From NCBI GenBank assembly GCA_023151185.1, contig JAKLJL010000004.1, positions 11,586 through 75,585 on the forward strand: a stretch of 64,000 nt of DNA, read 5' to 3'. The position numbers and the translations under genes are program-made. Under the pieces are notes generated by a model. It was not told the DNA's origin. It did no database searches and worked only from the letters and a program-made list of their open reading frames with translations. How positions within the stretch are numbered: position 1 is the first letter of the stretch; the number at the start of each line of letters is the position of its first letter. The stretch is from Bacteroidota bacterium (GTDB lineage Bacteria > Bacteroidota > JABWAT01). Below, one piece after another: positions 16,711-51,867 of the stretch.

Positions 16711-18075
16711 TCAAATGGTAAATTCGTAATAACTGGTCCTGCAAAGATCAGTATCCTGCTTTTCCGTATAATTTCCCCGCCACTGCCTGGCTGCGATAAC
16801 CGAAAGTGCTTCGGCAAGAACTTCAATTTCTTCACGGGTATTGTAAAGTCCGATCGTAGCCCGGATGGCACCAGGAATTTTTGCTGCTTCCCCTTTTACC
16901 AACTGGTCCCTGAGCAAAGCCGACTCTTCGGGTGTTACCTTCAGAAGATGATGCAGCAGCGGATGGGCACAGAAACAGCCGTTCCGGGTTGCAATGGCAT
17001 ACTCATAATTGAGGATTGTTGCCGCCAGCTCATGGTAAACACCGTCTATCGTAAAGGTCAGCACACCCGATTTGGTTGCAGCCGTTTTCGGTCCGTACAA
17101 AGTCAGACCGGGAATGGCCGTCAGCTTCCCGATTGCAAAATCAGTCAGTTCCCGTTCATGTTCCCTCACGTGATCCATTCCGATATCCTTCAGATAATGA
17201 AGGGCTGCCCCAACAGCAATGGCACCGGCAATATTCGGTGTACCGCCCTGATGCCGGTCAGGTGACTTGTCAAAAAATACATCCTCAGCCGTCACATATT
17301 TCACAGTCCCGCCACCGGGCATATAAGGTGGCGCAGCATCAAACACTTTTTTCGGGCCGAATAAAAACCCGGAACCCATCGGGGCATAGGCTTTATGACC
17401 GGCTGCAGCCAGAAAATCAATATGCTCAGGATGGTCATTCGGCCTCACATCAATACTATTATGAGCCAGTAACTGTGCCGCATCAACCAGAATATAAGCC
17501 CCGTGTTCATGTGCAAGCCGGGCAATTTTATGAATTTCAGGATAGTAGCCGGTCACATTGGAACACCCGGTAACCGCTACCAGCTTCACATGATAAGCTC
17601 TGAGTTTTCGCTCCAGGTCGGCGTAATCCAGGGTTCCGTCTTCCGTCGCACCAACATGAACCACCTTTCCTCTGGCCCGGTGAGGCAGGTCATTCGAATG
17701 ATGTTCGAGCAGAGTGGTCAGGGTCACACCCGAAAGATGTTCAACCATGTGCCCGGCCATATCCAGAGCCATTGTGGTATTCTGGGTATACATAATGCAG
17801 TTTTCGGACGGATCCCCATGAATAAAATCCAGTATGATTTCAGAAACCTGGTCAAACAGATCGGTCGACATGATACTCAGGTGATGGTGGCCCCGGTGCA
17901 CATTGGCATAATAGGAAGATAAAAATTTCTGGTATTTCTCAATTACCGGCTGCGGGGCATGGGTTGAAGCCCCATGATCCATATAAATGAGAGGTTGCGG
18001 GTCAGGTTTTCCTATAACGGGAAAGGTCAGTCCGGTCACCGGAAAGTCACTCCGGATTTTTGCAGAATCAAACAT
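16711..18075 (-). CDS. Class-V aminotransferase, cysteine desulfurase (SufS/Csd-like)
   Basis: A 454-residue PLP enzyme of fold type I, class V. K228 in AAAGHKAYAPMG is the expected Schiff-base lysine, and LVDAAQL supplies the PLP-contacting Asp. The mobile-loop region RNGCFCAHP holds C367 and C369; C369 aligns with the catalytic Cys of group-II cysteine desulfurases (R-x-G-x-x-C-A). It would take sulfur from cysteine for Fe-S or other sulfur transfer, or act as a selenocysteine lyase-like or related C-S enzyme. Several insertions (HRGHHHLSIMST, MPGGGTVKYV) match the SufS-like branch. It overlaps the upstream hypothetical gene by 8 nt, so the two are translated together. No SufBCD genes are in the window, so a general housekeeping Suf role is unproven. 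Confidence 0.85.
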   Translation of the reverse strand: MFDSAKIRSDFPVTGLTFPVIGKPDPQPLIYMDHGASTHAPQPVIEKYQKFLSSYYANVHRGHHHLSIMSTDLFDQVSEIILDFIHGDPSENCIMYTQNTTMALDMAGHMVEHLSGVTLTTLLEHHSNDLPHRARGKVVHVGATEDGTLDYADLERKLRAYHVKLVAVTGCSNVTGYYPEIHKIARLAHEHGAYILVDAAQLLAHNSIDVRPNDHPEHIDFLAAAGHKAYAPMGSGFLFGPKKVFDAAPPYMPGGGTVKYVTAEDVFFDKSPDRHQGGTPNIAGAIAVGAALHYLKDIGMDHVREHERELTDFAIGKLTAIPGLTLYGPKTAATKSGVLTFTIDGVYHELAATILNYEYAIATRNGCFCAHPLLHHLLKVTPEESALLRDQLVKGEAAKIPGAIRATIGLYNTREEIEVLAEALSVIAARQWRGNYTEKQDTDLCRTSYYEFTI

Positions 18076-18838
18076 CGTCGTCTCTGTCAGGGAAAAATAG
18101 TACGTCGTTCATCGTTGTCTGGATAAAATCAAGCAGATCCGTTCCAGGGGCACCCGGTTCCAGTTTTTTCAGTTCCTGCTCCAGTTTCCGGCGGTACCGG
18201 CTGGTCTGCGCTTCCTTCACCTCCGGATTCGCAAGATGAAGGTTCCAGTAAAAAATACAGAAGTTCTCGATCAGCCGCCGGGTCACTTCCCGGGTCACCC
18301 CGGCCTCCTCACAAAGCTGAAGTGAAAAAGCATACAACGGGAAGGACGGCGTGTAAGCCAGTGTCTGCCCGTTTTTCATCCGGTACCTGAATGAAGGAAT
18401 CCGGATCTTGAAATTCAGTTCATCAATAAAAGCAAATTCGTACATCGCCTGGTAAAACAACCGGTTTAGGATCAGACGGGCTTCCTCAGGGGCATAATCC
18501 GGCATTTCCCGGCCTTCTGGACCGGTCATGCCAAGTACCTGATCAGAAGCTTCAAGAATCTGTTCCTCTGACCGGGAGGCGCCAATAACGACCATCGCCT
18601 GAAACAGATCCGAAAAAAAATGAAAGGACTCCGAGTCGGATGGAAAAGGAAGGGAAGGCTTGTCCTGAAAATAATAGGGAACCGCACCCTCAATAAAAGA
18701 GGAAAGTGCATCCAGATAGGCCCCGGCATGCCGGTCCTGAAGACGGACAATCAGTCCCTGCTCCATAGTCGGACTGTGTGGCAGTGTCAGATGCCGGATT
18801 TCGAGTGGTCTTGCTCGCCTGGCCAGTTTACGGCGCAT
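18068..18838 (-). CDS. Unknown cytosolic protein coupled to the cysteine desulfurase
   Basis: A protein of about 256 residues that I do not recognise. It has no signal peptide or membrane segment and looks largely helical (YLDALSSFIEGAVPYYF, EEARLILNRLFYQAMYEF, FCIFYWNLHLANPEVKEA) with an acidic C-terminus (FFPDRDDDV). The frame continues 27 codons further up to a GTG at 18919, but the ATG at 18838 has a modest AGG 8 nt upstream, whereas the GTG lies about 26 nt from the strong AGGAGG in this region; the start is therefore uncertain. Its stop overlaps the start of the class-V aminotransferase by 8 nt, which suggests that both act in one pathway. It is divergent from an Rrf2-type regulator that could control it. 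Confidence 0.7.
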   Translation of the reverse strand: MRRKLARRARPLEIRHLTLPHSPTMEQGLIVRLQDRHAGAYLDALSSFIEGAVPYYFQDKPSLPFPSDSESFHFFSDLFQAMVVIGASRSEEQILEASDQVLGMTGPEGREMPDYAPEEARLILNRLFYQAMYEFAFIDELNFKIRIPSFRYRMKNGQTLAYTPSFPLYAFSLQLCEEAGVTREVTRRLIENFCIFYWNLHLANPEVKEAQTSRYRRKLEQELKKLEPGAPGTDLLDFIQTTMNDVLFFPDRDDDV

Positions 18839-18953
18839 TCCCAATACCTGTTTTTTTGTGCAAGATACAACCGGATTCAGGGAAATAAAATCAACCCCGC
18901 CCGCCAAAACAAACGGCACCCGCAGCTCAACCCCGAAAAAAAAACCTCCTCCC

Positions 18954-19012
18954 TTGACAACTCCGGTTTCCTGATTTTATCTTTGTAAACACAATATGTA
19001 CAATATATAGTT
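18954..19012 (+). promoter_or_regulatory. Promoter and operator of the Rrf2-type regulator
   Basis: TTG at 18954-18956 (within TTGACA) and TATCTTTG at 18978-18985 fit the Bacteroidota promoter exactly at the -7 box, with 21 nt between. The start would be near 18991. The next 20 nt (18993-19012) form an AT-rich element that reads AATATATAGT at its end, and the ATG follows directly at 19013. A similar element stands before the downstream outer-membrane protein gene (15 of 20 positions identical). Binding by the regulator over its own start site would give autorepression; that is inference. Confidence 0.6.
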
Positions 19013-19435
19013 ATGGCCTATTCACTTTCGTTTTCAAAGTCTATTCTGGTTCTGATTTTTATCTCGGATAAAACCCGACGGGGTGAGACTGAGTTTATTT
19101 CGACGAAAATCATGAGTGACCTGCTCAGTATCCCCAAACCAACCCTTTCAGTGATTCTCTCAAACCTGATGCGGGCAGGAATTTTGTATACCAAAGAGGG
19201 GGCAGGCGGTGGCTTCAGAATGGCAAAGTCAGAAGACCAGATTACCCTGCTCGACATTCTTCTGGCCATCGAAAATGAAAAACCGCTGTTCCAGACCGAA
19301 TTTGGAATGAAAGCTTCGGGCGATCGCCCAGACAGGGCCAGAGTGTTGGTATCCCAAACTCTGAAAAACGCTGAGTCTCTGATGAAAGATGAACTTAAAA
19401 AAACAACCCTGAAAACTCTGCTGGGGTCAATGTAA
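19013..19435 (+). CDS. Rrf2-family transcriptional regulator without Fe-S cysteines
   Basis: A 140-residue winged-helix regulator of the Rrf2 family. The N-terminal LSFSKSILVLIFIS and the recognition region SDLLSIPKPTLSVILSNLMRAGIL, with the wing YTKEGAGGGFRMAKS, are characteristic; GAGGGF corresponds to the G-x-x-GGF motif. The family usually carries three cysteines for a [2Fe-2S] cluster (IscR, NsrR), but this protein has no cysteine at all, so it must sense something else, as CymR-like or SaiR-like members do. It has a near-consensus promoter and an operator-like repeat directly before its ATG. It sits between a divergent cysteine-desulfurase pair and an outer-membrane protein gene that shares the repeat, which are the obvious candidate targets. 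Confidence 0.85.
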   Translation: MAYSLSFSKSILVLIFISDKTRRGETEFISTKIMSDLLSIPKPTLSVILSNLMRAGILYTKEGAGGGFRMAKSEDQITLLDILLAIENEKPLFQTEFGMKASGDRPDRARVLVSQTLKNAESLMKDELKKTTLKTLLGSM

Positions 19436-19454
19436 AATTTTTTATCCATAACAA

Positions 19455-19474
19455 CATATACATAATATATAGTA
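19455..19474 (+). promoter_or_regulatory. Second copy of the candidate Rrf2 operator
   Basis: This 20-nt element matches the one at 18993-19012 at 15 positions, with the 10-nt core AATATATAGT identical. It lies 25 nt before the ATG of the outer-membrane protein gene and overlaps where a promoter should be. I see no good TAnnTTTG box near it, so the promoter itself is unresolved. Identity in an AT-rich string is weaker evidence than in a mixed sequence. Confidence 0.5.
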
Positions 19475-19498
19475 TATTAACCAAAAAAAGGAAAAACA

Positions 19499-20098
19499 AT
19501 GAAAACACCTCTCATCTGCACCCTCCTGCTGGCTTCCGGTTTACTCACCGGCGGGGTTCAGCAGTCTGCCGCTCAAACCTTCACCGAAAAGTCAGTCTGG
19601 TCTGCCGAAACCGATCCGGCCACCTTTCTTTTCTCCGGATTCGCAGTTCACCTGCGGGTCAAGCCGTCTTTCTCTGAAAACTGGGTTCTCGGTGCAGGAA
19701 CTTATGCCATGGATCTGCCTTCCCTGATGGTCGATCTGAACTCTGAAAATAAGGGAAAGGGCTGGAAAGTCAGGATCGACGGGGCCTTTTCACTTTTCAG
19801 TGAATATTATTTCCGGGAAGCCAATACCGGCAGCTTTATCGGAGTCCAGGCCGGATTTCAGAATTACCGCCTGACAAACAAGCAGACCGGATCGAAGGGA
19901 GTTTCATATAATCTGCTGGTCCTGATGCCTTCTGCCGGGTATACCTGGAGACCCTGGGACGGCTCCTTCTATCTGAAACCCTGGCTGGGGCTCGGGTGGG
20001 TCCCCAAACTGTCCGGCCGGACTACTCTGGGAACTCAGCAGTATGATCTTGCTCCGGTAACGGCGTTTGCAACTCTTCACACCGGATTTACCTTCTGA
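19499..20098 (+). CDS. Outer-membrane beta-barrel protein, possible Rrf2 target
   Basis: A 199-residue exported protein with a signal peptide ending QSAAQ and a mature part of alternating hydrophobic/polar strands with aromatic girdles (WVLGAGTYAMDLPSLM, SLFSEYYFREANTGSFIGV, FYLKPWLGLGWVPKL). The last residues are HTGFTF with a terminal Phe, the BAM-recognition signature. AAGGA stands 9 nt before the ATG. It lies 63 nt downstream of the Rrf2 gene and shares the candidate operator, so it is likely repressed or co-controlled by that regulator. I recognise the fold class but not the family; no substrate can be given. Confidence 0.75.
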   Translation: MKTPLICTLLLASGLLTGGVQQSAAQTFTEKSVWSAETDPATFLFSGFAVHLRVKPSFSENWVLGAGTYAMDLPSLMVDLNSENKGKGWKVRIDGAFSLFSEYYFREANTGSFIGVQAGFQNYRLTNKQTGSKGVSYNLLVLMPSAGYTWRPWDGSFYLKPWLGLGWVPKLSGRTTLGTQQYDLAPVTAFATLHTGFTF

Positions 20099-20243
20099 AA
20101 CCGGTCCGGCAGCGGTCAGCCAAAGCGGTTTCATCTCTGCCCAGGATGACTTGATCCACCCAAAGTGTGTAACAAGTCGTAACAGATTGACTTCTGCCGG
20201 ATTTATTTTCAGATTTCTGATGTTTTGAGCTCAAACCAAAAAC

Positions 20244-35850: not shown

Positions 35851-36176
35851 TATAAGCCGAGGCATACGGGTTCAACGGGTCGGGTGACAGGAGCCGCCTG
35901 GTTTGGGGGTTCCGTCGATGGACGGATTTCCGCTATGCTTCAACAGTCAGTCTGGCTTTGTAATTATAGAGATCCAAATCGGCGTCACATTTTCCGACAG
36001 TGGCCGAAATTTCGGTTTTACCTCACCCAGCCCGGTATAGGTGAAGTTACAAACAATAAGCCCACTTTTTTAGAGTAAACCGCATCTCCAAACGGAGAGT
36101 ATTCATATAATTCTACCTTCCGGTTGGTTACTCCTGTTGCTGCATTTAAAACTACTTTTGTAGTGCCAAGGATTGA
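35851..36176 (-). pseudogene. Decayed RHS-repeat core fragment
   Basis: Read on the minus strand, three frames each give a recognisable piece of an RHS core in the right order. First comes GTTKVVLNAATG, then ELYEYSPFGDAVYSKKVG. A frameshift follows, then FTYTG, another shift to DLDLYNYKARL, and then RLLSPDPLNPYASAY. Stop codons lie between the pieces. The 51 nt from 35851 differ from the living RHS gene (37660-37720 region) at only about 6 positions. After YASAY the sequence changes, so the DPxG end and any toxin are lost. The 700-nt stretch 35614-36326 holds nothing else that codes; the rest of it shows no RNA gene or stem that I can call. Confidence 0.8.
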
Positions 36177-36185
36177 ATTGAACCT

Positions 36186-36218
36186 GCGGTCACTGAGCGA
36201 AGCCGAATTGTCGAAATA
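36186..36218. repeat. Extragenic CACTGAGC-type repeat element
   Basis: The sequence reads CGGTCACTGAGCGAAGC on the plus strand and ends GTCGAAAT. It resembles the short extragenic repeats containing TTCGNC...CTCAGTGACC that are scattered in many genomes of several phyla. Only one copy is seen in this window. It lies at the point where the RHS relic loses homology. Membership in a family is from general familiarity, not from a search. Confidence 0.4.
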
Positions 36219-36326
36219 GGGTCTTTCAGAATGAAATATTCATTTGGAGTAAAAACTAGTTTTTTATTTACTCATTTAGCAGTTGAATAAAATGTGACTT
36301 TAGAAAAAAATGCATTAATGACTGTT

Positions 36327-36809
36327 TTACTTAAAATCTGTTTTCAGGTTCAGAATGACTCCCAAAAATAAAAACAAATTGGAACACCTGCCATTGTTGA
36401 AAGTATTATTTTCATAAATGATAATTTTCTCCATTTTAAATCTTTCAACGTAAATAACGAACTTACAGCAATGTAATTTGTCAACAAAAGAATATTTTAA
36501 AACACTAAAGGCTTCCCCATTTAAGTCCTCCATTGTTTCCTCTTCATTTAGAAAATCCCCAACTGTGTCCCTTGTTGCAACGCCTGAGATTGAGTATTTA
36601 ATTGATTTATCAACTCTATAACTTTCAATATTAATGAACAATGTATCGGAATTAATTTCAGTAATTTCAATATTCTGAATTAAGGAATCGTTCTTAAATT
36701 GATAGAACTTTTGTGTTGAAAAAATACCATTCGCTAAAATATTAATCGAAAAAATAAAATTATAAACTAAAAATACGAATGAAGGTAAAACAATAAATGA
36801 TGGCTTCAT
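36327..36809 (-). CDS. AT-rich small exported protein, candidate immunity to the RHS toxin
   Basis: A 160-residue protein I cannot assign to a family. Residues 1-28 are a hydrophobic N-terminus that looks like a signal peptide or anchor (SFIVLPSFVFLVYNFIFSI), so the protein would act outside the cytosol. The rest is rich in Asn, Ile, Lys and Phe, with two adjacent Cys (HCCKF) and one more near the end. Base use is unlike the window: in one 60-nt line (36421-36480) I count 15 G/C. It starts 13 nt after the RHS stop on the same strand with AAAGAG before the ATG. That order, toxin then small gene with foreign composition, and the export signal match the needed place of a peptidoglycan-enzyme immunity protein. 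The role is inferred. Confidence 0.6.
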   Translation of the reverse strand: MKPSFIVLPSFVFLVYNFIFSINILANGIFSTQKFYQFKNDSLIQNIEITEINSDTLFINIESYRVDKSIKYSISGVATRDTVGDFLNEEETMEDLNGEAFSVLKYSFVDKLHCCKFVIYVERFKMEKIIIYENNTFNNGRCSNLFLFLGVILNLKTDFK

Positions 36810-36822
36810 TATATTCTCTTTC

Positions 36823-39800
36823 TTATTTTGGCCAATAATAGTTTACGACGTTAGTTTTTTTATAATAACTATCAAGAGTTTTAACTTGATTTGATTGGTT
36901 TCCACCATATAAACTGATAAATCCTTCTTTAGCTCCAGGCCCAATGTAAAAACCAACATGATATTGTCCATCTTTCAATGTTAGAGTAATGCAACCATAC
37001 CTTGGCTCAGTTAAAACAGTTCCCCAAGTGGCCCACGATTCGGCTCTACCGCTTCTTGTACCCGAATACCCTGCATTTGTCATGACCCAATTTGCAAAAG
37101 CTGAACACCAACCCCAGTTTAGAGTTCCAGGAAGCCCAGATAGTTCTGTTGCATCAAAATATTCGATAATTCTTGGTGAATTTTCATATTCGCCACTTGT
37201 AGATAAGATCTCTTTAACACCACTTTCTTTGAGTGCAATTTTCATCCAATCCGATGCATTGACCTCATTACTTTTCTCACTAACAACTTGTGTACTTTGT
37301 AAATCAGGCAACCCGGCTACGGGTAATTGTTGGGTCCTGTGCTCAGGGAAAACCAACCTTAACGTGTGGAGTGCCGGGGTTGAAATTATGTACTCTGGAA
37401 CTATTTCGCCATTATAAGACCTCATCAGTCTATCATGAGCTGCCAGCATATCTTTATGAATTCCAAATGGAGTTGTGTTTTCACCTCTTGCCCGGGCACC
37501 ATATGTCGCATTGGATGGGGCCCAATACATTTCCCAATTTAATTGCCACTGCAAAAAGTAATCTAATCGACAATCATTATCAATTTGCTGCTGATTTGTG
37601 AGTGTTGAATTCATCCCGCTTGGATCCACAAGAGAGATTGGGTTATTCCCCACATAAATATAAGGCGAGGCATACTGGTTCAAGGGGTCGGGAGACAGGA
37701 AGCGCCTGGTCTGAGGATCATACAACCTAGCTTTGTAATTCATAAGACCCAGATCGGCATCCCATTCCTGCCCGGTGTAGGTAAAATCGGTTTGTGCAGT
37801 CCCAACAAGTTTTGAATACAGAACCTCACCAAATGCTGCATACTCATACACGCCAACCGTTGCTCCCGTTTGGCCATTGTAAACCACACGCACTGACCCG
37901 AGGTGGTCTTTCTGCATAAAATAGTCGACTGAGCTCTGCCGGAGGGCAAGAACTCCGTTAAGGCCATAAATATAGTGTTTGATGGTCTCCGTTCCGTTCA
38001 CACCGGTTTTTTCCCGGATCTCAAGAGGCGTACCGTCTGCTGAATTCAGGTAGAGGCGGTATTTGGTGGTACTCCCGGTGGTCGTTTCCTTCAGCACTCT
38101 TGCGCCTGAACTTTCATAGGAAAGCTGGACCGTTGAAAGGGTAATTCCACCCGATTTCTTAACAGCAGTTCCTAAAAGATTGGAATAGGCATCGAATGTG
38201 TATTCATCCACCACAGCAGGAGAGCCTTCCCCGTCATCGTAACTGCTTGTTTTTAAAAAGCCCGAATTGTCGAAGGTATTAGTCCATGAGGTTAGTGAAT
38301 TGCTGTTACTGAATGTGGATAATCTGGAATTACCGCTTTGATAGAAGTAGACCAGCGGGTCTGCACCCTTTGATGCGTTCAGGATATTACTGTTCAAATC
38401 GTAAATTGCCGTTAGCCCACTACCAACCCCCAGGTCTCCCTGTGCAAGATACGAATTGGAGGATACATAGTCAGCAGCAGTTAACTGGCCGAGCTTATCG
38501 TAGGCATACCGGACTGTATAATTGCCCGGTGTACCGGTTACAGACAATCCTGAATAGGAAAAGGCGACAGATGCTATTTTACCATCCTTATAGCCCAGAT
38601 TGTCCCCATATCTTCCGGTAGTGTAAGTAAGGGCTTCATTGAAATACCCCCCGGAGATTCCGGTCAGCCAGCCCGGAGAGTTGTAATTGTATCCAACAGC
38701 TTTATTAACACCATACGTTGCCTGGTTTTCCTGTGAGAGCTGGCCCGTTAACATATTATAGGTATATAGGGCATAATAATCTGCATCCGATGGTGTCCCG
38801 ACGGTTTTCAGTCTTCCAAATTCATCATAAGAATAATCTACCTGGTGCCCGGATGGGTAGGTTATCCGGGTAATCTGGTTCAACAGGTTATAGGTATAAC
38901 CTGTCTGGTAAGTTACCGTTGTAGAATACCGGGTCACTTTTTCCTTTTTTGTTACCAGCCGGTTAAGACTGTCATACCCATACTGCTCATCGACTTCTGC
39001 CAGTACATCCGTATTGGTATTGAGCAGTTTTCTGTAAAGCAGTCCTCTTACACCCAAAACCCAGGTTGTACCATTCCAATCGTAATCATAGAAGGATTTA
39101 ATTTTCCATTTTGAAGAACTTACCGGGAAATTGGCGTTATCAGCCTGGAGAATTACTGTATTCCAGTCCAGGGAATCCACAATCCCTTCTTCAACAATTC
39201 TGTTCAAAACATCATACTTAAAGTACTTAACCTGATCCAATACCCCACTGTAATTTTCACCGGAAGCCTGAAGAATAAACCGGAGGCGGCCAAGTTCGTC
39301 ATAAGCAATTCGCCCGGTACCCTTTTCCTTGGTTGTTGAAGAAACCAGGAGGCCACGGTTATCATAGGAGTAGGTTTCAATATACGAATCTGCAGGAGTC
39401 CCCTGGGTTGGGGGTGTAAAATAGTTGGGCGTAAAGACTTTGGTTACCTGACCTTTTGCATTATACTCATATTTTGTTTGCTGAAACTCGCCATCAATGT
39501 AATTTACACTGCCTGTTATATCAAATCTTCTTAACCCTGAATGGGAGGCCACAGTGTAGGAAATATATAAATCCAGCCCGGGAGTTGCCTGGTAACTACC
39601 CGTAAATGTGCCGCCCCCGGTTGTTTTGGAGACCTGTTTTGTATAAATATCCCCACCTCCTGGTGTTGTCCCGATTTTAAATTCGCCGGAGTAAGTATCA
39701 TTTTCATCAGCGGTACCCACCACGTTAAATGAGACCGTCCAGGAGATGGTCTGATTCCGGTAATTATGAATTATTTTACTACCGGTTTCCGCACTGGTAA

Positions 39801-42800
39801 GGTTAGACGCAAAAGTATATCCGCTTGTAAATTCTTTTAGCGGCCCGACTTTGTCGCCGATTTTTTTCCCTGAAAAATCAAAAGCCGAATACGTATAAAT
39901 TCCATCTTCTGGTTTATAGGCCGCACTGATCAGATACTTTGTCTCATCATCGCCATTAAACTGAACAATATTGGCATCATCCTGATATTTCATTTCAGGG
40001 CGGTCACCATTTCCTACCTGAAACTCTGTTCCGGGAAGACCTGCTTTTAATGCCCTAGAAAAGGGGGATTGCTCATAGACGGTTCTGAAATAGGGATACC
40101 CACCATCGGATGGATTTGAACTGAGAACAGTCCCGGAGATGGTATTATTTACCCAATTGTAGGTCGCATAATCAGTTTTGTAACCAAACGGAACTAATGA
40201 ACCCGTATAAAGTGCCGGTTTGGGTTGAATGGCTGGCCGGTTTGCGCTATCATAGATTGGTCCTGATACCACCAGAGACCCCCCGTTGTCAACCTGGGTC
40301 TGAATCAGGTTACCCGAGGCATTGTAATATTTCATTGCGGCAACCGGTTTAGACACCAGTAGCAGGTTATCTATTGAGGCTACCGTTCCCGCAGTCAAGG
40401 TGATCTTTAGAGTCCCTGAAATTGAAGACGGAGCCAGATAGTTCAGCGTTAATCTGCCATCTGCAAAGAATAGCAATTTATTAGAAATAACCTGGAGATA
40501 CCATTCTTTACCGGCGGTTACCATTGAAGCGGTTGACACCACCGTGCCGGAACTGTTTTGAATCAAAGACCAGGTTCCGTTATTTAAACGGACAGAGTAA
40601 TCTCCAACCGCCAGCTTAACATCATAGGCGGCAGATTCCCGGTTTAGCCAGAACCTGATTCCGGCATTTGAAATTGTGGATGGCGTGTAGGTTACATCGC
40701 CCGCCACTGTAGCCGAATTGTGGTAGAGAGTCCCGGATTTCCGGGAAAAATTCATCAGTGCCCAGTCGGTATTGTCATAATTAAAATTATAAAAACTACC
40801 CCCGTTTTGTGCAGAAACAGTCAAAGCAGAGTGGGGATCCCCAGATGAATAGGATGTCGAACCAGCCTTTTTCAAGGTATTGAACCCAGTTGTAAAACCT
40901 CCAATCAGCCCGTTGGGATCGGTCCCGGAAAACGCGTCCAGAAAATTGTTGTAATAAAGAAAGGAGGTCTCCTGATTGTTCCCAAGCACCGCAACCGGCA
41001 GTGTTAGCACCGAATCCAGAACGGTAACGGATGAGACGGAGTAAAAGGGCATAAAGCGAATATCATCAACAACAACCGAAGCCGTTGTATGATCATTGTA
41101 AACATATGCCCTGAGGCGAAGCGGGGAGGTAACGCCTCCTCTGATTGCACCCAGATCGGCAACCACTGAAAAATATTTCCATTTGCCTGATGTATTGGTA
41201 ATGGGAGCAGAAAAAAGACCCGCTGCAGGATAAACGGTATTGTTATCTCCGTCTGCTTTAGAATGCAGAACAAGTGCAGCACTTCCATCGGTATATCCGG
41301 TCTCTGTTTTTACCCAACAGGAAAAAATATATTTACCATTTTGATCACTTGGCAGGAAGTCGCGTGTTGGGCCAAAAATTCTACCGGTTGTTTTTTTGGC
41401 AAGTTTGACCGCATACTTTCCGGTGTGGCCGTTTAAAACCAGATCATTTATCCCGGTGCCATAAAGTCCCCAGAAGTCATTTTCTGCAGAACCTGATGCC
41501 GAAACGCCTGAATCAAATCCAGCATAAGAAGCATCCCGGCCCACGCCGGAAGGCAAGCCTAATGTATTACGTGAGGCATTTGTAAAAGAAGCTACGGGGT
41601 ATTCTTTATCAGGGGTATACTGGGTTGAAATAAATTTTTCCTCGATATTTTTTGTTTCAGAGACCTGTCCTGAAGGGGTAATACCCGTTATCTCACGTGT
41701 TTTCTGCCAATAAACTGAGCTTGGTTCGGCTGCTCCTTCCCAACCGGAGAATTCAGGCATCTGATCTTCGCCACCGATAAACCGGTAGGTCTTCCAGGGG
41801 TACATTAGCCCAGTACCAGTGTTTGCCAAAAGGGTAATTTGGGCCCTGGTGTATTTTTCTCCATTTTTGTTAACCTGTAATACCGGAAGGTTTAGAAGAT
41901 TAATATTCCATGAAGCTGAATATGCCGGATATGAATAAGACAGGGTCGTTGATAAAATGGACTGATCTGAATTGATCAGTTCTGTTTTCTTTAACCGGAA
42001 AAGAGGACGACCGGTAGACTGTTCCGCAGTATCCCAATAATATTTGGTTACAATTTCTGCTGACCCCTTTTTCGTCTTTTGCTGATTCATGTAAACAAAA
42101 TCAACTTTTTTACCAAAAACTTCCGGCTGGTTCACCGTGTAATAATTGGTTACCGATTCAAGAAGACGGTTGTTGCTGTCATAAATTTCAGTTTTTAGTG
42201 GCCGTCCCAACAAAAGATCATAGTATTGGTAGCCGCCATTCCATTCTGATTTGGGTAGTGGAAAAGACGACAGGTAGTGGACATCATTCCGCCCGGTGTG
42301 GAAGTAGTGAATGGTTTTTCCACCAGTCGGGGGTATTACCGTCGTCTTGTAAAAATAGCCCTGCTGGTAGCTGGAGTTAAAACCACCTTTTTCCGGATCA
42401 AATTCATATGACCAGGTAATTTGTTTGTACCCGTCGCTGATCGTTACGGCACTTGCAACAATGGCGGTATAACTACCCGTCATTTGGTACTTCCCGGCCC
42501 GGTCAAAGGTATAGGAATCATTAAGCACAGTGGTACCGGTTTGAAACACCTTCCCCAAAGATTTAAAAAAGTTGCCTACAACCTGAACCTGAATGAGTGA
42601 GTTATCCTTAATGAAAACAATATTCCCCCGCTTACGGTTTGGCAAATTTTCATTTGGAAAACTTGCTTCCGGACTGTCGGTTAGATTATAGGCAAAGAAG
42701 TTGTCAAAACCTAAAGTTGGATATTTAACAGGGATTGTCCAAGACGGTTCGCTAAAATCCAGGTCAAAGGGATACTCACTTACTTCACCAATTAAAGGCC

Positions 42801-45294
42801 AGTTCATTCCACCATCGGTACGATACACTTTTTGGAAATTCACCAAAAAACCTTGTCCGGCTGCAAATGCATAGGTATCAGCCAGAATTGTAGAAGTCGA
42901 ATCAACAAAGGATGATGTGGCGTAATTCCATTGCCTTTTATGAAAATAATTATTTGCGTCAACCCAGAATAGTTTAAACAGGGGGCCAGGCTGAATGCTG
43001 AAAAAATGTGGAAAAAATTCCGACATTGCAACTGTAAAGGTAGCCCCAGTTTTTACAAAAACTTCGCAAATCTTTCCCTCATTTGCTGTAAAGACCACCA
43101 TTCCGTCCCGGAAAACGAATTTCCGGCCTGAATAACTGTTATAAGAACTGGACACATTAATTTCTTCCTGGTGAATCACATTATCTTTATCCGCATAGGT
43201 GTAGAAATAGATATGATCATTTCCGGGAAAGCCATAGACTGACGCAGTAGTACTATTTTCAATTAGAAATGGGGTTCCTTCATTAACATTGTGGTAGGCT
43301 GTTGTCGTATTCTGCTTCCAGGAGCCACTGTTGTCCCGGTAGAAATAAATAATTTTATCCGGTGCATTATTATTTACCTGATAGATTCCAAACCCATTCG
43401 GTGAGTTGGCAAGAATCTCATAATTCTGTATCCAGTCAGAGCCGGTTCGGTAATAGGTGTTGTAGGCGAATGCCGCATTATTATCGGCCCTGAACTTGGT
43501 CCACTGGTTATTCTTTAACTCAAAAATGATTGTTTTTCCGGTATTCTCACCGACTAAAGCAAACCAGTCATCTCCCTTTGCAATTTTTAAATGATTATTA
43601 TTGTTTTCCCAATGTTCGGTGTAATCGACCTGATCTTGCTCCCCAATTATAAGATCCTGATCACCTCCCTGGTTATAAAAATCCTGAACAGACCAAAGCC
43701 CATTTGAGTTTTTTGTTATAAAAATTACCCTTTTCTGTTTAATTGACCAAAAATAATTGTAAACGATGGCATAATAGTTTTTCCCTGCAAACAGTGAAAT
43801 GTTATAAATCTGATCATCCCCAAAATCTGTATGCCAATGTCGGTCAATTAACCCGGTAAATTCGGTTGTTAAAACAGTAGTGAAATATCCGTTAACTTTT
43901 TCGCACAGGTTCAGGCATAATTTCCCACCGGCGCTTTCCTGCTTTTTAACATAAAGAACGCTGTTTTCTCCTTCAATCATATCATATTCATCAGTTGGAT
44001 AAGATGCCGGGGGGAACCGATGTTCGTTTTCTGCATTATTTATAATTTGACCAGAGGAAAACGTTTTTGTTGTGTAGGTGAAGGTCGTTATTTCACCCAA
44101 AGGAGTGGTAATTGTTTTTAAGTTACAGAAATCAGCCAGATTAGAAACGGTTCCATAGCTAAATACTGTTGAAGGGTTTGTCTCATTAAAATAATTTGCT
44201 TCGCTTAAGCCAACCAAGACTCTTTTGATTTTTGCCCCAGTCCCGATAAAGTCATAGCTACAGGAAATGGTCTTTCGTTTTACTGAATTATTTGAAAACA
44301 CCTCGAATTTTGAGATATATCTCGGATTTGAAGGCTCCTGATAAAAATACACCGGCAAATCCCCGGGTTGATTGAGTTTAAGTTCGTTACTGGTTTTATC
44401 CCCATAAGTTATCAACAACCGGTTATCCCTGTTGTCTTTTATTTCTGAAAGGTTTTGATATCTGGTGAACAAATTTCCTGTACTTTGCCCGATTTGTTTT
44501 TCCTGAATCTCGTAGGAAAATGTGGTTTGGTTCCCAAATAAATCCCGAATTGTGTAGAGGGACCACTGAATTGCTACCTGTCTCTGAATCCGGGTGCTTC
44601 CGTTGAACACTTGAGCTGTCGGAATAAACTGATCATTGGTTGTGACAACCCATACAATTGAATTTCCCTTGCTCTTTTTATTCTCCCCGTCCGTATAATA
44701 ACCATTTACATGACAATCCATATAATAGCCATCCACTCCTCCGAACGTAAAAATGACCCCCTGATCACCCACAACCTCCCACTTATCAATCAATTCGTCG
44801 TAAAAGTAGGTAATCCTAAAAGCGGTCCCCTTCTTTGTTATTAAAGAGAGTTTTTTATTAACTGGATCATCGGCTACAACCTGAAGGGCGTAACTATTCC
44901 CCCCAATTTCCAGAAAATAGTCGTCATCTGCCATCACAGCAGTTCCTTTTGTGTCCCGGCGTACCGAATTAATTGTATATGACCAGCCAACACCAAGTAC
45001 ACCTGTCGGATTTTCCAAATTATCCCGGTTCGCAACTCCATCTATCGAGGAGTGACTTCTGTAATTAATTGCAAAGGAAATTCCTGAGTTACCCTTTCCT
45101 TCAGTTTCGGCTATCGGGTATGAAAAACTGACCTGGCCGGTAAACATATCAACTGAGTTAACTCTGCTTCCTTCAAGACTGCCCTCACTGCTAAAACGGG
45201 CATTTGAAGAGGGGCCCACCAGTGCAACTTGCCCAAAAACGCTCATAGGCAAACATAAAAGCACTGCACTTTTTAAAACAGAAAGATAAGACAT
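36823..45294 (-). CDS. Secreted RHS-repeat toxin with C-terminal TIGR02594/NlpC-P60-like amidase
   Basis: A 2,823-residue protein. Residues 1-21 are a Sec signal ending SVFG-Q. An N-terminal part with VDMFTGQVSFSYPIAETEG and GVGWSYTINSVRRD resembles the SpvB/TcB-like start of RHS proteins. The middle holds a long beta-rich region and a CBM4/9-like sandwich (about residues 1270-1410). Then come YD repeats (YSYDNRGLL, YSYDEFGRL, YAYDKLGQL) and the RHS core (KDHLGSVRVVYN, YEYAAFGEVLYS, ARLYDPQTRRFLSPD, YIYVGNNPISLVDPSG). DPSG is residues 2557-2560, the usual self-cleavage border. The variable tip, residues 2561-2823, has ALKESGVKEI, WCSAFANWV with C2730, HVGFYIG with H2779, and YGGNQSNQV, which I recognise as TIGR02594, NlpC/P60-like peptidoglycan hydrolases. 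Cys and His are both intact. TCTGGAGA is 9 nt before the ATG. There is no T6SS PAAR region and no T9SS sorting domain. Confidence 0.88.
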   Translation of the reverse strand: MSYLSVLKSAVLLCLPMSVFGQVALVGPSSNARFSSEGSLEGSRVNSVDMFTGQVSFSYPIAETEGKGNSGISFAINYRSHSSIDGVANRDNLENPTGVLGVGWSYTINSVRRDTKGTAVMADDDYFLEIGGNSYALQVVADDPVNKKLSLITKKGTAFRITYFYDELIDKWEVVGDQGVIFTFGGVDGYYMDCHVNGYYTDGENKKSKGNSIVWVVTTNDQFIPTAQVFNGSTRIQRQVAIQWSLYTIRDLFGNQTTFSYEIQEKQIGQSTGNLFTRYQNLSEIKDNRDNRLLITYGDKTSNELKLNQPGDLPVYFYQEPSNPRYISKFEVFSNNSVKRKTISCSYDFIGTGAKIKRVLVGLSEANYFNETNPSTVFSYGTVSNLADFCNLKTITTPLGEITTFTYTTKTFSSGQIINNAENEHRFPPASYPTDEYDMIEGENSVLYVKKQESAGGKLCLNLCEKVNGYFTTVLTTEFTGLIDRHWHTDFGDDQIYNISLFAGKNYYAIVYNYFWSIKQKRVIFITKNSNGLWSVQDFYNQGGDQDLIIGEQDQVDYTEHWENNNNHLKIAKGDDWFALVGENTGKTIIFELKNNQWTKFRADNNAAFAYNTYYRTGSDWIQNYEILANSPNGFGIYQVNNNAPDKIIYFYRDNSGSWKQNTTTAYHNVNEGTPFLIENSTTASVYGFPGNDHIYFYTYADKDNVIHQEEINVSSSYNSYSGRKFVFRDGMVVFTANEGKICEVFVKTGATFTVAMSEFFPHFFSIQPGPLFKLFWVDANNYFHKRQWNYATSSFVDSTSTILADTYAFAAGQGFLVNFQKVYRTDGGMNWPLIGEVSEYPFDLDFSEPSWTIPVKYPTLGFDNFFAYNLTDSPEASFPNENLPNRKRGNIVFIKDNSLIQVQVVGNFFKSLGKVFQTGTTVLNDSYTFDRAGKYQMTGSYTAIVASAVTISDGYKQITWSYEFDPEKGGFNSSYQQGYFYKTTVIPPTGGKTIHYFHTGRNDVHYLSSFPLPKSEWNGGYQYYDLLLGRPLKTEIYDSNNRLLESVTNYYTVNQPEVFGKKVDFVYMNQQKTKKGSAEIVTKYYWDTAEQSTGRPLFRLKKTELINSDQSILSTTLSYSYPAYSASWNINLLNLPVLQVNKNGEKYTRAQITLLANTGTGLMYPWKTYRFIGGEDQMPEFSGWEGAAEPSSVYWQKTREITGITPSGQVSETKNIEEKFISTQYTPDKEYPVASFTNASRNTLGLPSGVGRDASYAGFDSGVSASGSAENDFWGLYGTGINDLVLNGHTGKYAVKLAKKTTGRIFGPTRDFLPSDQNGKYIFSCWVKTETGYTDGSAALVLHSKADGDNNTVYPAAGLFSAPITNTSGKWKYFSVVADLGAIRGGVTSPLRLRAYVYNDHTTASVVVDDIRFMPFYSVSSVTVLDSVLTLPVAVLGNNQETSFLYYNNFLDAFSGTDPNGLIGGFTTGFNTLKKAGSTSYSSGDPHSALTVSAQNGGSFYNFNYDNTDWALMNFSRKSGTLYHNSATVAGDVTYTPSTISNAGIRFWLNRESAAYDVKLAVGDYSVRLNNGTWSLIQNSSGTVVSTASMVTAGKEWYLQVISNKLLFFADGRLTLNYLAPSSISGTLKITLTAGTVASIDNLLLVSKPVAAMKYYNASGNLIQTQVDNGGSLVVSGPIYDSANRPAIQPKPALYTGSLVPFGYKTDYATYNWVNNTISGTVLSSNPSDGGYPYFRTVYEQSPFSRALKAGLPGTEFQVGNGDRPEMKYQDDANIVQFNGDDETKYLISAAYKPEDGIYTYSAFDFSGKKIGDKVGPLKEFTSGYTFASNLTSAETGSKIIHNYRNQTISWTVSFNVVGTADENDTYSGEFKIGTTPGGGDIYTKQVSKTTGGGTFTGSYQATPGLDLYISYTVASHSGLRRFDITGSVNYIDGEFQQTKYEYNAKGQVTKVFTPNYFTPPTQGTPADSYIETYSYDNRGLLVSSTTKEKGTGRIAYDELGRLRFILQASGENYSGVLDQVKYFKYDVLNRIVEEGIVDSLDWNTVILQADNANFPVSSSKWKIKSFYDYDWNGTTWVLGVRGLLYRKLLNTNTDVLAEVDEQYGYDSLNRLVTKKEKVTRYSTTVTYQTGYTYNLLNQITRITYPSGHQVDYSYDEFGRLKTVGTPSDADYYALYTYNMLTGQLSQENQATYGVNKAVGYNYNSPGWLTGISGGYFNEALTYTTGRYGDNLGYKDGKIASVAFSYSGLSVTGTPGNYTVRYAYDKLGQLTAADYVSSNSYLAQGDLGVGSGLTAIYDLNSNILNASKGADPLVYFYQSGNSRLSTFSNSNSLTSWTNTFDNSGFLKTSSYDDGEGSPAVVDEYTFDAYSNLLGTAVKKSGGITLSTVQLSYESSGARVLKETTTGSTTKYRLYLNSADGTPLEIREKTGVNGTETIKHYIYGLNGVLALRQSSVDYFMQKDHLGSVRVVYNGQTGATVGVYEYAAFGEVLYSKLVGTAQTDFTYTGQEWDADLGLMNYKARLYDPQTRRFLSPDPLNQYASPYIYVGNNPISLVDPSGMNSTLTNQQQIDNDCRLDYFLQWQLNWEMYWAPSNATYGARARGENTTPFGIHKDMLAAHDRLMRSYNGEIVPEYIISTPALHTLRLVFPEHRTQQLPVAGLPDLQSTQVVSEKSNEVNASDWMKIALKESGVKEILSTSGEYENSPRIIEYFDATELSGLPGTLNWGWCSAFANWVMTNAGYSGTRSGRAESWATWGTVLTEPRYGCITLTLKDGQYHVGFYIGPGAKEGFISLYGGNQSNQVKTLDSYYKKTNVVNYYWPK

Positions 45295-45506
45295 GGTAAA
45301 ATTCTCCAGAGGATAATTAAATTCGTTCTTAATATTGTAATACTATTCAAATAACTATTTCAATAATAAGAATATCATAACCTTAAATCAAGCTAACAAA
45401 AGCGTATAATTCATTTCTAATGAATAAACGGTGGTCTTTACTTTGTGCTTATCGACTACGATCCCGACATTGCGCCGTTGCCAGGACACCCTTCCCTTCA
45501 AAAACC

Positions 45507-45545
45507 AAAAAGGGCTGTCACCGTTTCCCGGGCAGCCCTTTTTTT
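45507..45545 (-). terminator. Strong terminator after the SusA-like amylase
   Basis: AAAAAGGGCTG (45507-45517) is fully complementary to CAGCCCTTTTT (45533-45543) around a 15-nt loop, with a T-run on either strand. It lies 25 nt after the amylase stop on the minus strand and also 200 nt upstream of the RHS gene, so it isolates the RHS promoter from amylase transcription. Confidence 0.88.
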
Positions 45546-45569
45546 GAAAAACCGGAGGTTAACACCGGG

Positions 45570-47426
45570 TTATTTGACCACGAACACCCGTGCGGTATAT
45601 CCCGGAATTGAAACTTCCCCGGCGGGAGAGAACGGAATCACCTCACCGGTCAGGGCATCAGTCAGGGAAATTGCCCCTCTGAGGTGCGGGGCAACCTGGC
45701 TCAGTTTCAGAGTTCTGGAAAACCGGTTATTGTTGGCCGAAACGAGAATCCGGTCCTGATCCTGATGCCGGATATACGTATAGACATTATCTTCCGGGCG
45801 GAAGTGAACCATTCCGCCATCCGTCAGGGCCGGGTGATCCTTTCTGAGCTGAATCAGAGTCCTGGTCAGGTTGTAAAAACAGGTTTCCGTTTCCGTCCGT
45901 CCGGCAGCCGTGAAAACACTCCGCTTATCTCCGGCCCAGCCGCCGGGCATTTCAGCCCGGATGTCGCCGTGTTCCTGTCCGCCAATAAACCCAAGTTCAG
46001 TTCCGTAATAAATCTGCGGAATCCCCCTGAGGGTCATCAGGACCGTTATCCCCATTTTAGCCTGGTCTTCCTTCTCGCCGGTCTGGTACATAACCCTGGG
46101 CAGATCATGGTTATCCAGAAAAGTCAGCAAAAGTGCCGGATTCCCATACAGGAAATCCTGAGTCAGGGTTTCATACAGCCGGTTGAACGATTTCTCTCCG
46201 CCGAAAATCTCCTTGGTTGCCCCGTACAGTCCAAAATCGGTTACCGACGGCATGTGGGTATTTAACCGGGCTACCGGAGAGTCTTTCTGATACAGGGAGA
46301 CGTAAACCGGATCTTCAATCCAGACTTCACCGACAATGTTAAACGATGGATATTCGGTCAGCACCGACTGCACCCATTTGGCCTGATACTCCTGAAAAAC
46401 ATACGGGAAAGTATCCTCACGGATTCCGTCAATCCCCAGATACTCAATCCACCAGAGAGTATTCTGAATCAGGTAAGTGGCCAGAAACGGATTTCTCTGA
46501 TTCATATCGGGCATATCGAAGACAAACCAGCCCTGACGTTCACGGGCTACCGAGGCAGAATCCTGATAGAGATCGGTCAGATTCGATTTGATGTGGCGGG
46601 TCAGGACGTACTGATCCGGCGTTCCGTTGATCCAGTCAGGAAACGGATAGTTCTTTACCCAGGGGTGATTAATCCCGATATGATTATTGACGTGGTCCAG
46701 GATGATTTTGAGGCCTTTTTTTCTGGCTTCATCAACCAGTTTGCGGTACAGTTCATTGGTTCCGAACCGGGGATCCACCTTATACAGATCAGTGGCCGAA
46801 TAGCCATGGTACGAAATGTTCCCGTTGTTTTCGATCAGCGGATTGATCCAGACCGCCGTGACGCCAAGGTCCTTCATGTAATCGAGGTTATTAAGGATTC
46901 CCTGTATATCTCCCCCATGACGGGAAAGTCCGTCTTTGCGGTTCAGTTCATTTTTATATCCGGCCACGACATCATTCGACGGGTCACCATTGGCAAACCG
47001 GTCGGGGGTGATCAGATAGACAATATCCTTCTGGCTGAATCCGGCATATTTCCCCTCACCGCTTTCCCGCTGGCGGAATTCATAGGCGGTTTCCAGCTTA
47101 TTCCCATCCTTCAGGGTAAGAGTCAGGGTATAGGTTCCCGGCTGGGTTTCAGGCGAAACCGTCACATCCACAAAAACATAGCCTTTCGACTGAGTCGGGG
47201 TAACCGCCGTCACCTTCAGGAAGGGTGAGTTCCATACGGCTGAAGCCACATCCAGATCCCGGCCGTAAACCATAAGCTGGACCGGACTCCATTTCATCCC
47301 GACCCACCAGTTCGGCGGTTCGATGCGGTCAACCCGGGCCTGAGAAAAAGCCGGGGCGGCGTTCACTAACAACAGGGATCCCAGCAGGAACCCCATAAGC
47401 AGACGGGAACGGTTAAACAGGGTCAT
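45570..47426 (-). CDS. GH13 amylase/neopullulanase, SusA-like
   Basis: A 618-residue exported alpha-glucan hydrolase. The signal peptide ends PAFSQ near residue 29. Residues about 30-125 are the N-terminal beta domain of cyclomaltodextrinase/neopullulanase-type enzymes (NWWVGMKWSPVQLMVYGRDL). The barrel has VIYLITPDRF-like DIVYLITPDRFANGDPSND, ILDHVNNHIG, D338 in GIREDTF (nucleophile), E367 in GEVWIED (acid/base) and D441 in LDNHDLPR; all three catalytic residues are present. The end has a C-terminal beta sandwich. The typical substrates are maltodextrins, cyclodextrins and pullulan in the periplasm. It is 30 nt after the M14 gene; no SusC/SusD genes are near. Confidence 0.93.
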   Translation of the reverse strand: MTLFNRSRLLMGFLLGSLLLVNAAPAFSQARVDRIEPPNWWVGMKWSPVQLMVYGRDLDVASAVWNSPFLKVTAVTPTQSKGYVFVDVTVSPETQPGTYTLTLTLKDGNKLETAYEFRQRESGEGKYAGFSQKDIVYLITPDRFANGDPSNDVVAGYKNELNRKDGLSRHGGDIQGILNNLDYMKDLGVTAVWINPLIENNGNISYHGYSATDLYKVDPRFGTNELYRKLVDEARKKGLKIILDHVNNHIGINHPWVKNYPFPDWINGTPDQYVLTRHIKSNLTDLYQDSASVARERQGWFVFDMPDMNQRNPFLATYLIQNTLWWIEYLGIDGIREDTFPYVFQEYQAKWVQSVLTEYPSFNIVGEVWIEDPVYVSLYQKDSPVARLNTHMPSVTDFGLYGATKEIFGGEKSFNRLYETLTQDFLYGNPALLLTFLDNHDLPRVMYQTGEKEDQAKMGITVLMTLRGIPQIYYGTELGFIGGQEHGDIRAEMPGGWAGDKRSVFTAAGRTETETCFYNLTRTLIQLRKDHPALTDGGMVHFRPEDNVYTYIRHQDQDRILVSANNNRFSRTLKLSQVAPHLRGAISLTDALTGEVIPFSPAGEVSIPGYTARVFVVK

Positions 47427-51700: not shown

Positions 51701-51867
51701 GCGAGATACATAATACCCCGGCTGTTCTGGGCAATGCACCAGTTCTGCCGTCCGGAAACGTACTGTGAAAACCGGATATTCTGAATGTACGGTTTCCCGG
51801 TCTGAACCCATGCCGGTGACGGATCTGCCTGAAGCTGAAGAAGAAGGAGAAAAAGTAGAAACTGCAT
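48742..51867 (-). CDS. Beta-propeller sensor histidine kinase (HTCS-like, no regulator domain)
   Basis: A 1,041-residue membrane sensor. A signal peptide opens the protein. Residues about 30-680 are Reg_prop-type repeats (NSRGIMYLANENGVLEYDG, GLWIGHESGISR, IWLGTDSDGLFCV) that fold as propellers, followed by a Y_Y_Y domain (FRLRFVYTSPVY, SWSPEEIRDYSGLREGLYTFMV). One transmembrane helix is near residue 765 (WWAFLVYLAALTGLVVFVV). The HisKA box has H814 in GLAHEINNPL and the ATPase has NILTNAAEAV, DNGTGIS and GKGTGLGL. Unlike classical hybrids there is no receiver or DNA-binding domain, so a separate response regulator is needed; none is in the window. Propeller sensors often detect glycans, and amylase genes lie on both sides. 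Confidence 0.93.
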   Translation of the reverse strand: MQFLLFLLLLQLQADPSPAWVQTGKPYIQNIRFSQYVSGRQNWCIAQNSRGIMYLANENGVLEYDGHTWTLIPIKENLTPFWIDIDSQDKIFVGSYGEIGYLLPDASGRMQYHSLMDLVPENFRDFKEVWEVRISGNFVYFRSFKYLFRYDGKSVTVFQRPGTADRFDVLSLIGDKPYFRIAGLGIYTLEGDSLVFLKGTEVFKDLKVNGIHPGPGGSLLIFSRFDGIFRYTGGKATLIDSPDQKLLKSAGIYDISRLESGLFALVTFFNGVLITDSDGKIRQIYNEANGLTDSFGLFSYLDKENGLWIGHESGISRISFGLPVIIYDRTSGLSGNIQLVESLNGKKIVGTSHGLFELDETDTNTPDRLPKAKKISPNPEVIHAIFKSGGEVLAGMANSTVSFDGKSLKPVMDRGVDLFAAVPGVPDLIVYHERFYGAGILKKQNGRWVDAGPISAFPYLITGMAVTRDKIWLGTDSDGLFCVETADDEAGLRSAFSKPRRFQLEANGRKGLFLLPAVTGDEVWCGSSEGLFRLQGAEFTPVAEFNSQLPESFRRIYALIPDGQSRLWIKTTNGRQYDSVVLTVSPAGKLVTAPVNLMNPWDKNFVSLISDPDGSVWMAIDDYLVHFRPGQVGGMRGISYQPTVSQVILNQDSVLAGRYYTGDIPELRFGEFRLRFVYTSPVYNYRTGVRYRVSCTRTGEPVWSSWSPEEIRDYSGLREGLYTFMVQAMDPDGRISEASSFTFRVLPPYYRTWWAFLVYLAALTGLVVFVVRYRTEQLKSRNRELENQVAVKTAMLVQSEKMAAMGELTSGLAHEINNPLTIIQLNAEMAEMTVTQALDEPEKEHLKPALSSFKSIFEGVRRIRLIVEKMSWFSVSEEFDRSVSAEDQLRAILSVVGARWPSIRISLQSELKEKDMVHGQSIKIVLYNILTNAAEAVEEAGIQGMLTGDGGKITVTARSEPGQLQFSVADNGTGISEQNQKKIFDPFFTTKPPGKGTGLGLFETYNSVRQMGGTIRVESQPGRGTTVWVSVPVQAVTEVKS

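What the first reader, a model, noticed from the sequence alone, without database searches (positions are those of the whole stretch)
18954..19474. Two matching AT-rich operators define a small Rrf2 regulon
Elements at 18993-19012 and 19455-19474 agree at 15 of 20 positions with an identical AATATATAGT core. One lies over the predicted transcription start of the Rrf2 gene, the other before the outer-membrane protein gene. The first is also in the divergent gap leading to the unknown protein and cysteine desulfurase.
Basis: partly seen in the sequence, partly recalled or inferred. Interest (0 to 1): 0.58.

Follow-up and report, generated by a model that had tools for sequence, protein, structure and literature searches.

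The report
Mobile two-gene cassette with matched operators
A small gene switch and the outer-membrane protein gene beside it each carry the same 25-letter control site; the pair looks acquired from other bacteria, and the site is found again at the same gene in every relative that has the switch, so this is probably a real self-contained control circuit rather than a chance match.

Summary
Each element is the right part of a 25-bp imperfect palindrome, (A/T)AC-N3-ATAT-N5-ATAT-N3-GT(A/T), at 18988-19012 (abutting the rrf2 start codon) and 19450-19474 (before the outer-membrane protein, OMP, gene). It recurs at rrf2 and before the next gene in all seven orthologous loci found (13 of 16 regions, window included, match exactly; three have 1-2 mismatches). 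In the 3.74-Mb host genome only these two sites match exactly; family genomes without this rrf2 carry about 0.17 sites each; OMP relatives without it have none. The rrf2-OMP pair is missing between the same flanking genes in three related genomes, so it was probably acquired. Operator 1 covers about -2 to +23 of a TAnnTTTG-type promoter: autorepression by occlusion is the likely mechanism (inferred). The unknown protein and cysteine desulfurase are native neighbours with their own promoter, probably outside the regulon. The Rrf2 has no cysteine, so it is neither an Fe-S nor a thiol sensor; its signal is unknown.

The parts
18988..19012 (+). Operator 1, 25-bp imperfect palindrome AACACAATATGTACAATATATAGTT; 7 of 12 pairs symmetric; abuts the rrf2 start codon
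   Evidence: same place in 7 of 8 orthologous loci (gap 0 or -1 bp), 21 bp away in L030
19450..19474 (+). Operator 2, AACAACATATACATAATATATAGTA, 24 bp before the OMP start codon
   Evidence: a site before the gene after rrf2 in 8 of 8 loci (L030 with 2 mismatches, L049 with 1)
18954..18985 (+). rrf2 promoter: TTGACA 18954-18959 and Bacteroidota-type -7 box TATCTTTG 18978-18985, 2 bp before operator 1; start of transcription inferred near 18990
   Evidence: box position -12 to -5 from PMC9723704 (passages)
19013..19435 (+). Rrf2-family regulator, 140 aa, no cysteine
   Evidence: PF02082 2.1e-20; 0 Cys in 8 of 8 orthologues; clade support 100/99
19438..19443 (+). T-tract ending 6 bp before operator 2
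   Evidence: A T-tract of 6 or more ends 5-6 bp before 9 of 10 downstream operators; role unknown
19499..20098 (+). Outer-membrane beta-barrel protein, 199 aa, target gene
   Evidence: Homologues in all 8 loci; eight-stranded model pLDDT 70.5; best fold match OprF barrel, E 3e-4
18839..20168 (+). Approximate extent of the acquired rrf2-OMP cassette
   Evidence: rrf2 and OMP absent between the same flanking genes in L067, L068, L069; 20169-20225 is 79% and 75% identical to the MBL promoter region of the two congeners. Left edge uncertain
18068..18838 (-). Conserved unknown protein (start corrected from 18919), native flanking gene, probably not in the regulon
   Evidence: Homology to congeners covers the protein from about residue 27; TATCTT box shared with them
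16711..18075 (-). SufS-like cysteine desulfurase, native flanking gene, probably not in the regulon
   Evidence: 85-86% identical in congeners without rrf2; TIGR01979 5.8e-94, below that model's cut-off

Best explanation
An acquired, self-contained regulon. The cysteine-free Rrf2 protein binds, as a dimer, 25-bp palindromes at its own promoter and before the OMP gene (in relatives also before a methyltransferase gene). Bound at about -2 to +23 of the rrf2 promoter it blocks RNA polymerase, so rrf2 represses itself; bound in the rrf2-OMP gap it blocks an internal promoter or the elongating polymerase. A signal that the protein senses without cysteines, probably a small molecule bound non-covalently, releases it and raises OMP. 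Shown: the sites, their conservation, their rarity, their linkage to this regulator, and the absence of the pair from the same place in relatives. Inferred: transfer, binding, repression, start of transcription, internal promoter, signal.
For: The 12-base pattern fits 13 of 16 regions at rrf2 and before the next gene exactly, the other three with 1, 1 and 2 mismatches; shuffles of each region reached the observed fit in 0 of 1000 for 12 of 16 regions and in 1, 1, 4 and 6 of 1000 for the rest. Five of the loci (L029, L030, L046, L048, L049) were read only after the 14-base pattern had been written down. Positions left free in the pattern also favour symmetric bases: T at -9 in 14 and A at +9 in 15 of 19 sites, A at -8 in 16 and T at +8 in 14. 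Genome-wide, 15 of 17 exact sites in 8 rrf2 genomes lie in the module or in a decayed second copy; the other two lie inside open frames. Family genomes without this rrf2: 17 sites in 98. Twenty loci of other Rrf2 genes: none within 2 mismatches. Nine OMP-family loci without this rrf2: none within 2 mismatches. Gene order after rrf2 varies (MT, DoxX, OMP) while the sites stay.
Against: No binding or expression data. The 19-site matrix was picked by the pattern, so its fixed positions are circular. Site symmetry is only 7 of 12 pairs at both window sites. L030 fits less well and its site lies 21 bp from the start codon. Site 2 of the window lacks the TTTG of the -7 box seen at site 1, so an internal promoter is weakly supported. 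Activation instead of repression is not excluded by sequence, though an operator over the start of transcription argues against it.
Confidence: 0.78

Rival explanations
1. The elements are only AT-rich promoter sequence, such as -10 regions, conserved for RNA polymerase and not for a regulator.
For: TATAGT inside operator 1 scores as a -10 hexamer, and both sites are AT-rich.
Against: Two-fold symmetry at fixed spacing, also at positions not in the search pattern; near absence elsewhere in the genome and in 98 family genomes; absence at OMP relatives without this rrf2; a separate TAnnTTTG or TAnnTTTA box lies 2 bp upstream of operator 1 and of 6 of the 8 other rrf2-side sites, the decayed copy included.
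Confidence: 0.08
2. The sites, or at least site 2, are bound by the host's own four-cysteine Rrf2 protein (contig C20) rather than, or besides, the cassette Rrf2.
For: That gene has its own palindrome TTTACATAATATATATTATATA, identical in three genomes and one base off in a fourth. In the host genome only two places match it within 3 of 22: its own promoter and window 19457-19478 at site 2; the reversed-pattern control gives none.
Against: Site 1 is 6 mismatches away. A random filling of the operator pattern with local base composition reaches 3 or fewer mismatches in 4.25% of 20,000 trials, and a foreign site (L029_2) reaches 4. The 25-bp pattern itself is absent at the C20 gene.
Confidence: 0.1
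3. The first operator also controls the divergent unknown protein and cysteine desulfurase.
For: It lies in the divergent gap. In one search a weak promoter match reads leftward from 19002 to 18974.
Against: The pair is conserved without rrf2 in three related genomes. A TATCTT box shared with two congeners puts the pair's start of transcription about 130 bp from the operator (inference). Upstream genes differ in L027 and L028.
Confidence: 0.08

Closest known systems
SifR / YwnA clade of Rrf2 repressors (PMC9218516: section 4 and passages read; PDB 1xd7)
   Same: Best solved relative by profile is YwnA, 8.2e-12. SifR is a dimer that represses through a near-palindromic operator and has no Fe-S cluster.
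   Different: SifR/YwnA carry one conserved cysteine, which in SifR senses quinones; here 0 cysteines in 8 of 8. SifR operator is TGTAA-N9-TTACA; here ATAT-N5-ATAT with outer AAC and GTT.
NsrR of Streptomyces coelicolor (PMC9338935 passages; PMC4432287 and PMC4861436 starts of abstracts in a listing)
   Same: Rrf2 family; a very small regulon that includes its own gene (nsrR, hmpA1, hmpA2); operator fragment of 23 bp.
   Different: NsrR has three cluster-binding cysteines and answers nitric oxide; there is no cysteine here.
IscR and CymR
   Same: Rrf2 superfamily; weak NCBIfam hits (2.5e-5, 2.3e-4).
   Different: Scores far below the curated cut-offs; no cysteine ligands; no Fe-S or cysteine-metabolism genes among the conserved targets.
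Rrf2 similarity clusters 5 and 20 (mycobacterial, cyanobacterial; PMC9218516 section 4)
   Same: Described as lacking conserved Cys and His.
   Different: Those are said to keep Tyr/Trp at key places; here no Trp in any of 8. Relation between them not tested.

Membership tests
Rrf2 family (PF02082) | Match to the family profile above the curated cut-off | tested here: met
   73.7 bits against 30; but below the TIGR00738 superfamily cut-off, 66 against 73.3
Rrf2 family (PF02082) | Wing with GxxGG motif | tested here: met
   EGxxGG, with G63, G66, G67 and R69 invariant in 8 sequences
Rrf2 family (PF02082) | Palindromic operator at its own promoter | tested here: met
   Sequence only; binding itself not testable here
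Fe-S Rrf2 regulators (IscR, NsrR, RirA) | Cysteine cluster ligands | tested here: not met
   0 cysteines in 8 of 8
SifR/YwnA monothiol group | One conserved cysteine at the N-cap of helix 5 | tested here: not met
   0 cysteines in 8 of 8; definition from PMC9218516 section 4
SifR/YwnA monothiol group | TGTAA-N9-TTACA operator (SifR) | tested here: not met
   Composition of the 19 sites differs; SifR operator from passages
Rrf2 clusters 5 and 20 (Cys/His-free) | Sequence membership of those clusters | not tested
   Their sequences were not at hand

The most novel reading that the evidence does not exclude
A cysteine-free Rrf2 clade that travels between Bacteroidota lineages as a complete switch, regulator plus operators plus envelope genes, and senses a non-redox ligand, a mode not described for the characterised Rrf2 proteins in the papers read; the host's own Fe-S-type Rrf2 may also read the site before OMP.
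Probability: 0.3. Interest if true: 0.58.

Novelty: new variant of a known kind. Interest (0 to 1): 0.42.

Why it matters
Characterised Rrf2 proteins in the papers read sense through Fe-S clusters or cysteine thiols. This clade has no cysteine yet keeps a sharp operator and a fixed target gene, so it offers a simple system to ask what else the Rrf2 fold can sense. It also gives a clean case of a regulator that appears to move with its own operators, and a 25-bp motif that can be used to find further members.

Tried and rejected
Rejected: the 10-base core as evidence (expected 1.24). Rejected: cysteine desulfurase as target, by comparison with three related genomes. Plasmid carriage of this clade: not seen; 91 plasmid records match, all under 60% identity, the top one at 27.7%. 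Wider regulon in the host genome: not seen; the third near match (51770-51794) is inside a 1041-aa frame, and the 2-mismatch hits were not followed one by one. A solved-structure profile search for the OMP gave nothing useful (best E 0.39). The Rrf2 model was weak (pLDDT 64.8) and was not used. The similarity of site 2 to the C20 operator was tested against a null and found only mildly unusual. Paper searches for an Rrf2 palindrome in Bacteroidetes, for Rrf2 with Flavobacterium/DoxX/methyltransferase, and searches listed no paper whose title or abstract start names this clade; most subscription papers are not held.

Left out of counts: the weak third candidate in L048 (827-851, 2 mismatches) is not among the 19 sites. 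L047 is a second fetch of L029, and L001, L021, L022, L031, L032 of the window; each place was counted once. The 19 sites were selected by the pattern. Two of the 17 control sites got no locus and were not checked for coding frames.

Full report
Observation. A consensus with 15 fixed and 5 two-fold positions fits both without mismatch and nothing else in the window at up to 3 mismatches; 100 shuffles contain none. The 10-base core alone is not significant.

What the element is. In the 3.74-Mb genome the strict form (AAC...GTT) occurs once exactly (operator 1) and twice more at one mismatch, namely operator 2 and a place inside a 1041-aa frame. The form with A/T ends matches only the two operators exactly.

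Relatives. One scan of genome contigs with the Rrf2 protein found two relatives: Flavobacterium sp. ZT3R18 (73% identity, L027) and a Paludibacter MAG (67%, L028). At E 1e-18 or better, whole-genome searches found it in 3 of 394 genomes of the phylum, 3 of 397 of the family of G288 and 2 of 79 of the family of G046, overlapping sets that give six genomes including the window's own. It is thus rare and scattered. The eight proteins form one clade (100/99) against 12 other Rrf2 proteins, with the window, Flavobacterium and Paludibacter together (97/99). The OMP tree has little support.

Conservation of the site. In all eight loci a site lies at rrf2 and another before the next gene. With the 12-base pattern, 13 of 16 regions match exactly and the others with 1, 1 and 2 mismatches; shuffles of each region reached the observed fit in 0 of 1000 for 12 regions and in 1, 1, 4 and 6 of 1000 for the other four. 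The pattern was shaped with the window, L027 and L028 in view and written down in its 14-base form before the other five loci were read; in those five, 7 of 10 regions match the 12-base form exactly. L029 and L049 have a third site. The rrf2 site ends at the start codon (gap 0 or -1 bp) in 7 of 8 loci and 21 bp before it in L030. Among 19 collected sites (18 from the eight loci, one from a decayed copy) the positions left free in the search also lean to symmetry: T -9 (14 of 19) with A +9 (15), A -8 (16) with T +8 (14).

Specificity controls. In the eight genomes that have this rrf2, 17 exact sites were found: 14 in the module, one before a decayed second copy of rrf2 in the Paludibacter genome (L070), two inside open frames elsewhere; G046 had none because its two sites carry mismatches. 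In 98 other genomes of the family of G288 the same pattern has 17 sites in 15 genomes, of which 13 of the 15 that could be inspected lie in open frames of 172 aa or more. Twenty loci of other Rrf2 genes have no site within 2 mismatches. Nine loci of OMP relatives, from genomes of the same 394 in which one search found no such rrf2, have none within 2 mismatches. The site therefore goes with the regulator, not with the OMP family or with base composition.

Anatomy. A TATCTTTG box lies 2 bp before operator 1; a TAnnTTTG or TAnnTTTA box lies 2 bp before the rrf2 site in 7 of 9 rrf2-side sites (the decayed copy included), directly before it in L049, and within the site in L030. In Flavobacterium psychrophilum this box spans -12 to -5 (PMC9723704, passages), which would place the start of transcription near 18990 and operator 1 at about -2 to +23 (inference). 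That is the position of a repressor that blocks RNA polymerase. A T-tract of six or more ends 5-6 bp before 9 of 10 downstream operators; it may belong to an internal promoter, but this is open.

Target genes. The constant partner is an outer-membrane protein of about 200 aa, modelled as an eight-stranded barrel (pLDDT 70.5) with OprF's barrel as best match (E 3e-4). Relatives add a SAM methyltransferase and in two genomes a DoxX-like protein. At this place the window keeps only rrf2 and OMP.

Acquisition and boundary. In two congeners and one further family member the flanking genes, unknown protein plus desulfurase on one side and MBL-fold hydrolase plus GDSL lipase on the other, stand next to each other without rrf2 or OMP. 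The MBL promoter region of the window matches that of the two congeners from 20169 on (79 and 75% over 57 bp). So the cassette was most simply gained by transfer; loss in the relatives is less likely given the scattered distribution (inference). The G+C of the two genes (45.6 and 53.5%) does not mark them clearly as foreign. The unknown protein's homology to the congeners starts near residue 27 (17 in one alignment), giving a probable start at 18838, and a TATCTT box shared with them lies at 18867-18862. Operator 1 is about 130 bp from the start of transcription so inferred.

Signal. None of the eight proteins has a cysteine or tryptophan; three have one histidine. This excludes the known cysteine-based modes. 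The profile's best solved relative is YwnA, whose group is defined by one cysteine (PMC9218516 section 4). I propose a non-covalently bound small molecule, with low confidence; nothing here identifies it.

Cross-talk. The host's own four-cysteine Rrf2 gene has a different conserved palindrome. Site 2 resembles it (3 mismatches of 22) and is the only other such place in the genome, but a null model gives this in 4.25% of trials. It is a lead, not a result.

Verdict. Real operators, a small regulon of rrf2 and OMP well supported by comparison, sites longer and more symmetric than described, probably acquired as a unit; desulfurase probably not included. Binding and repression remain to be shown.

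Noticed in passing
G000:C20:33319-33340 (L105), orthologous places in L106, L107, L109: A four-cysteine (CVAGFPECHREDPC) Rrf2 gene has an AT-rich palindrome TTTACATAATATATATTATATA about 85-91 bp upstream, identical in three genomes and one base off in a fourth; probably its own operator.
   Followed up: partly
window 19457-19478: Site 2 matches that other Rrf2 palindrome at 19 of 22 positions, the only second place in the genome.
   Followed up: yes
window 19438-19443 and the same place in relatives: A T-tract of 6 or more ends 5-6 bp before 9 of 10 downstream operators, mostly right after the rrf2 stop codon; unexplained.
   Followed up: partly
L070 2619-4408: Second, decayed copy of the module in the Paludibacter MAG: broken rrf2, methyltransferase remnant, OMP paralogue, operator kept.
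   Followed up: partly
L028 6249-9666: Several copies of the OMP gene in the Paludibacter module; two are nearly identical.
   Followed up: no
window 36001-46000: A stretch of low G+C (38-46%) in a window otherwise mostly near 50-54%, possibly foreign.
   Followed up: no
L116 (G002:C31:7752-7773): A one-mismatch copy of the C20 Rrf2 palindrome lies between two open frames in a congener, away from its rrf2 gene.
   Followed up: no
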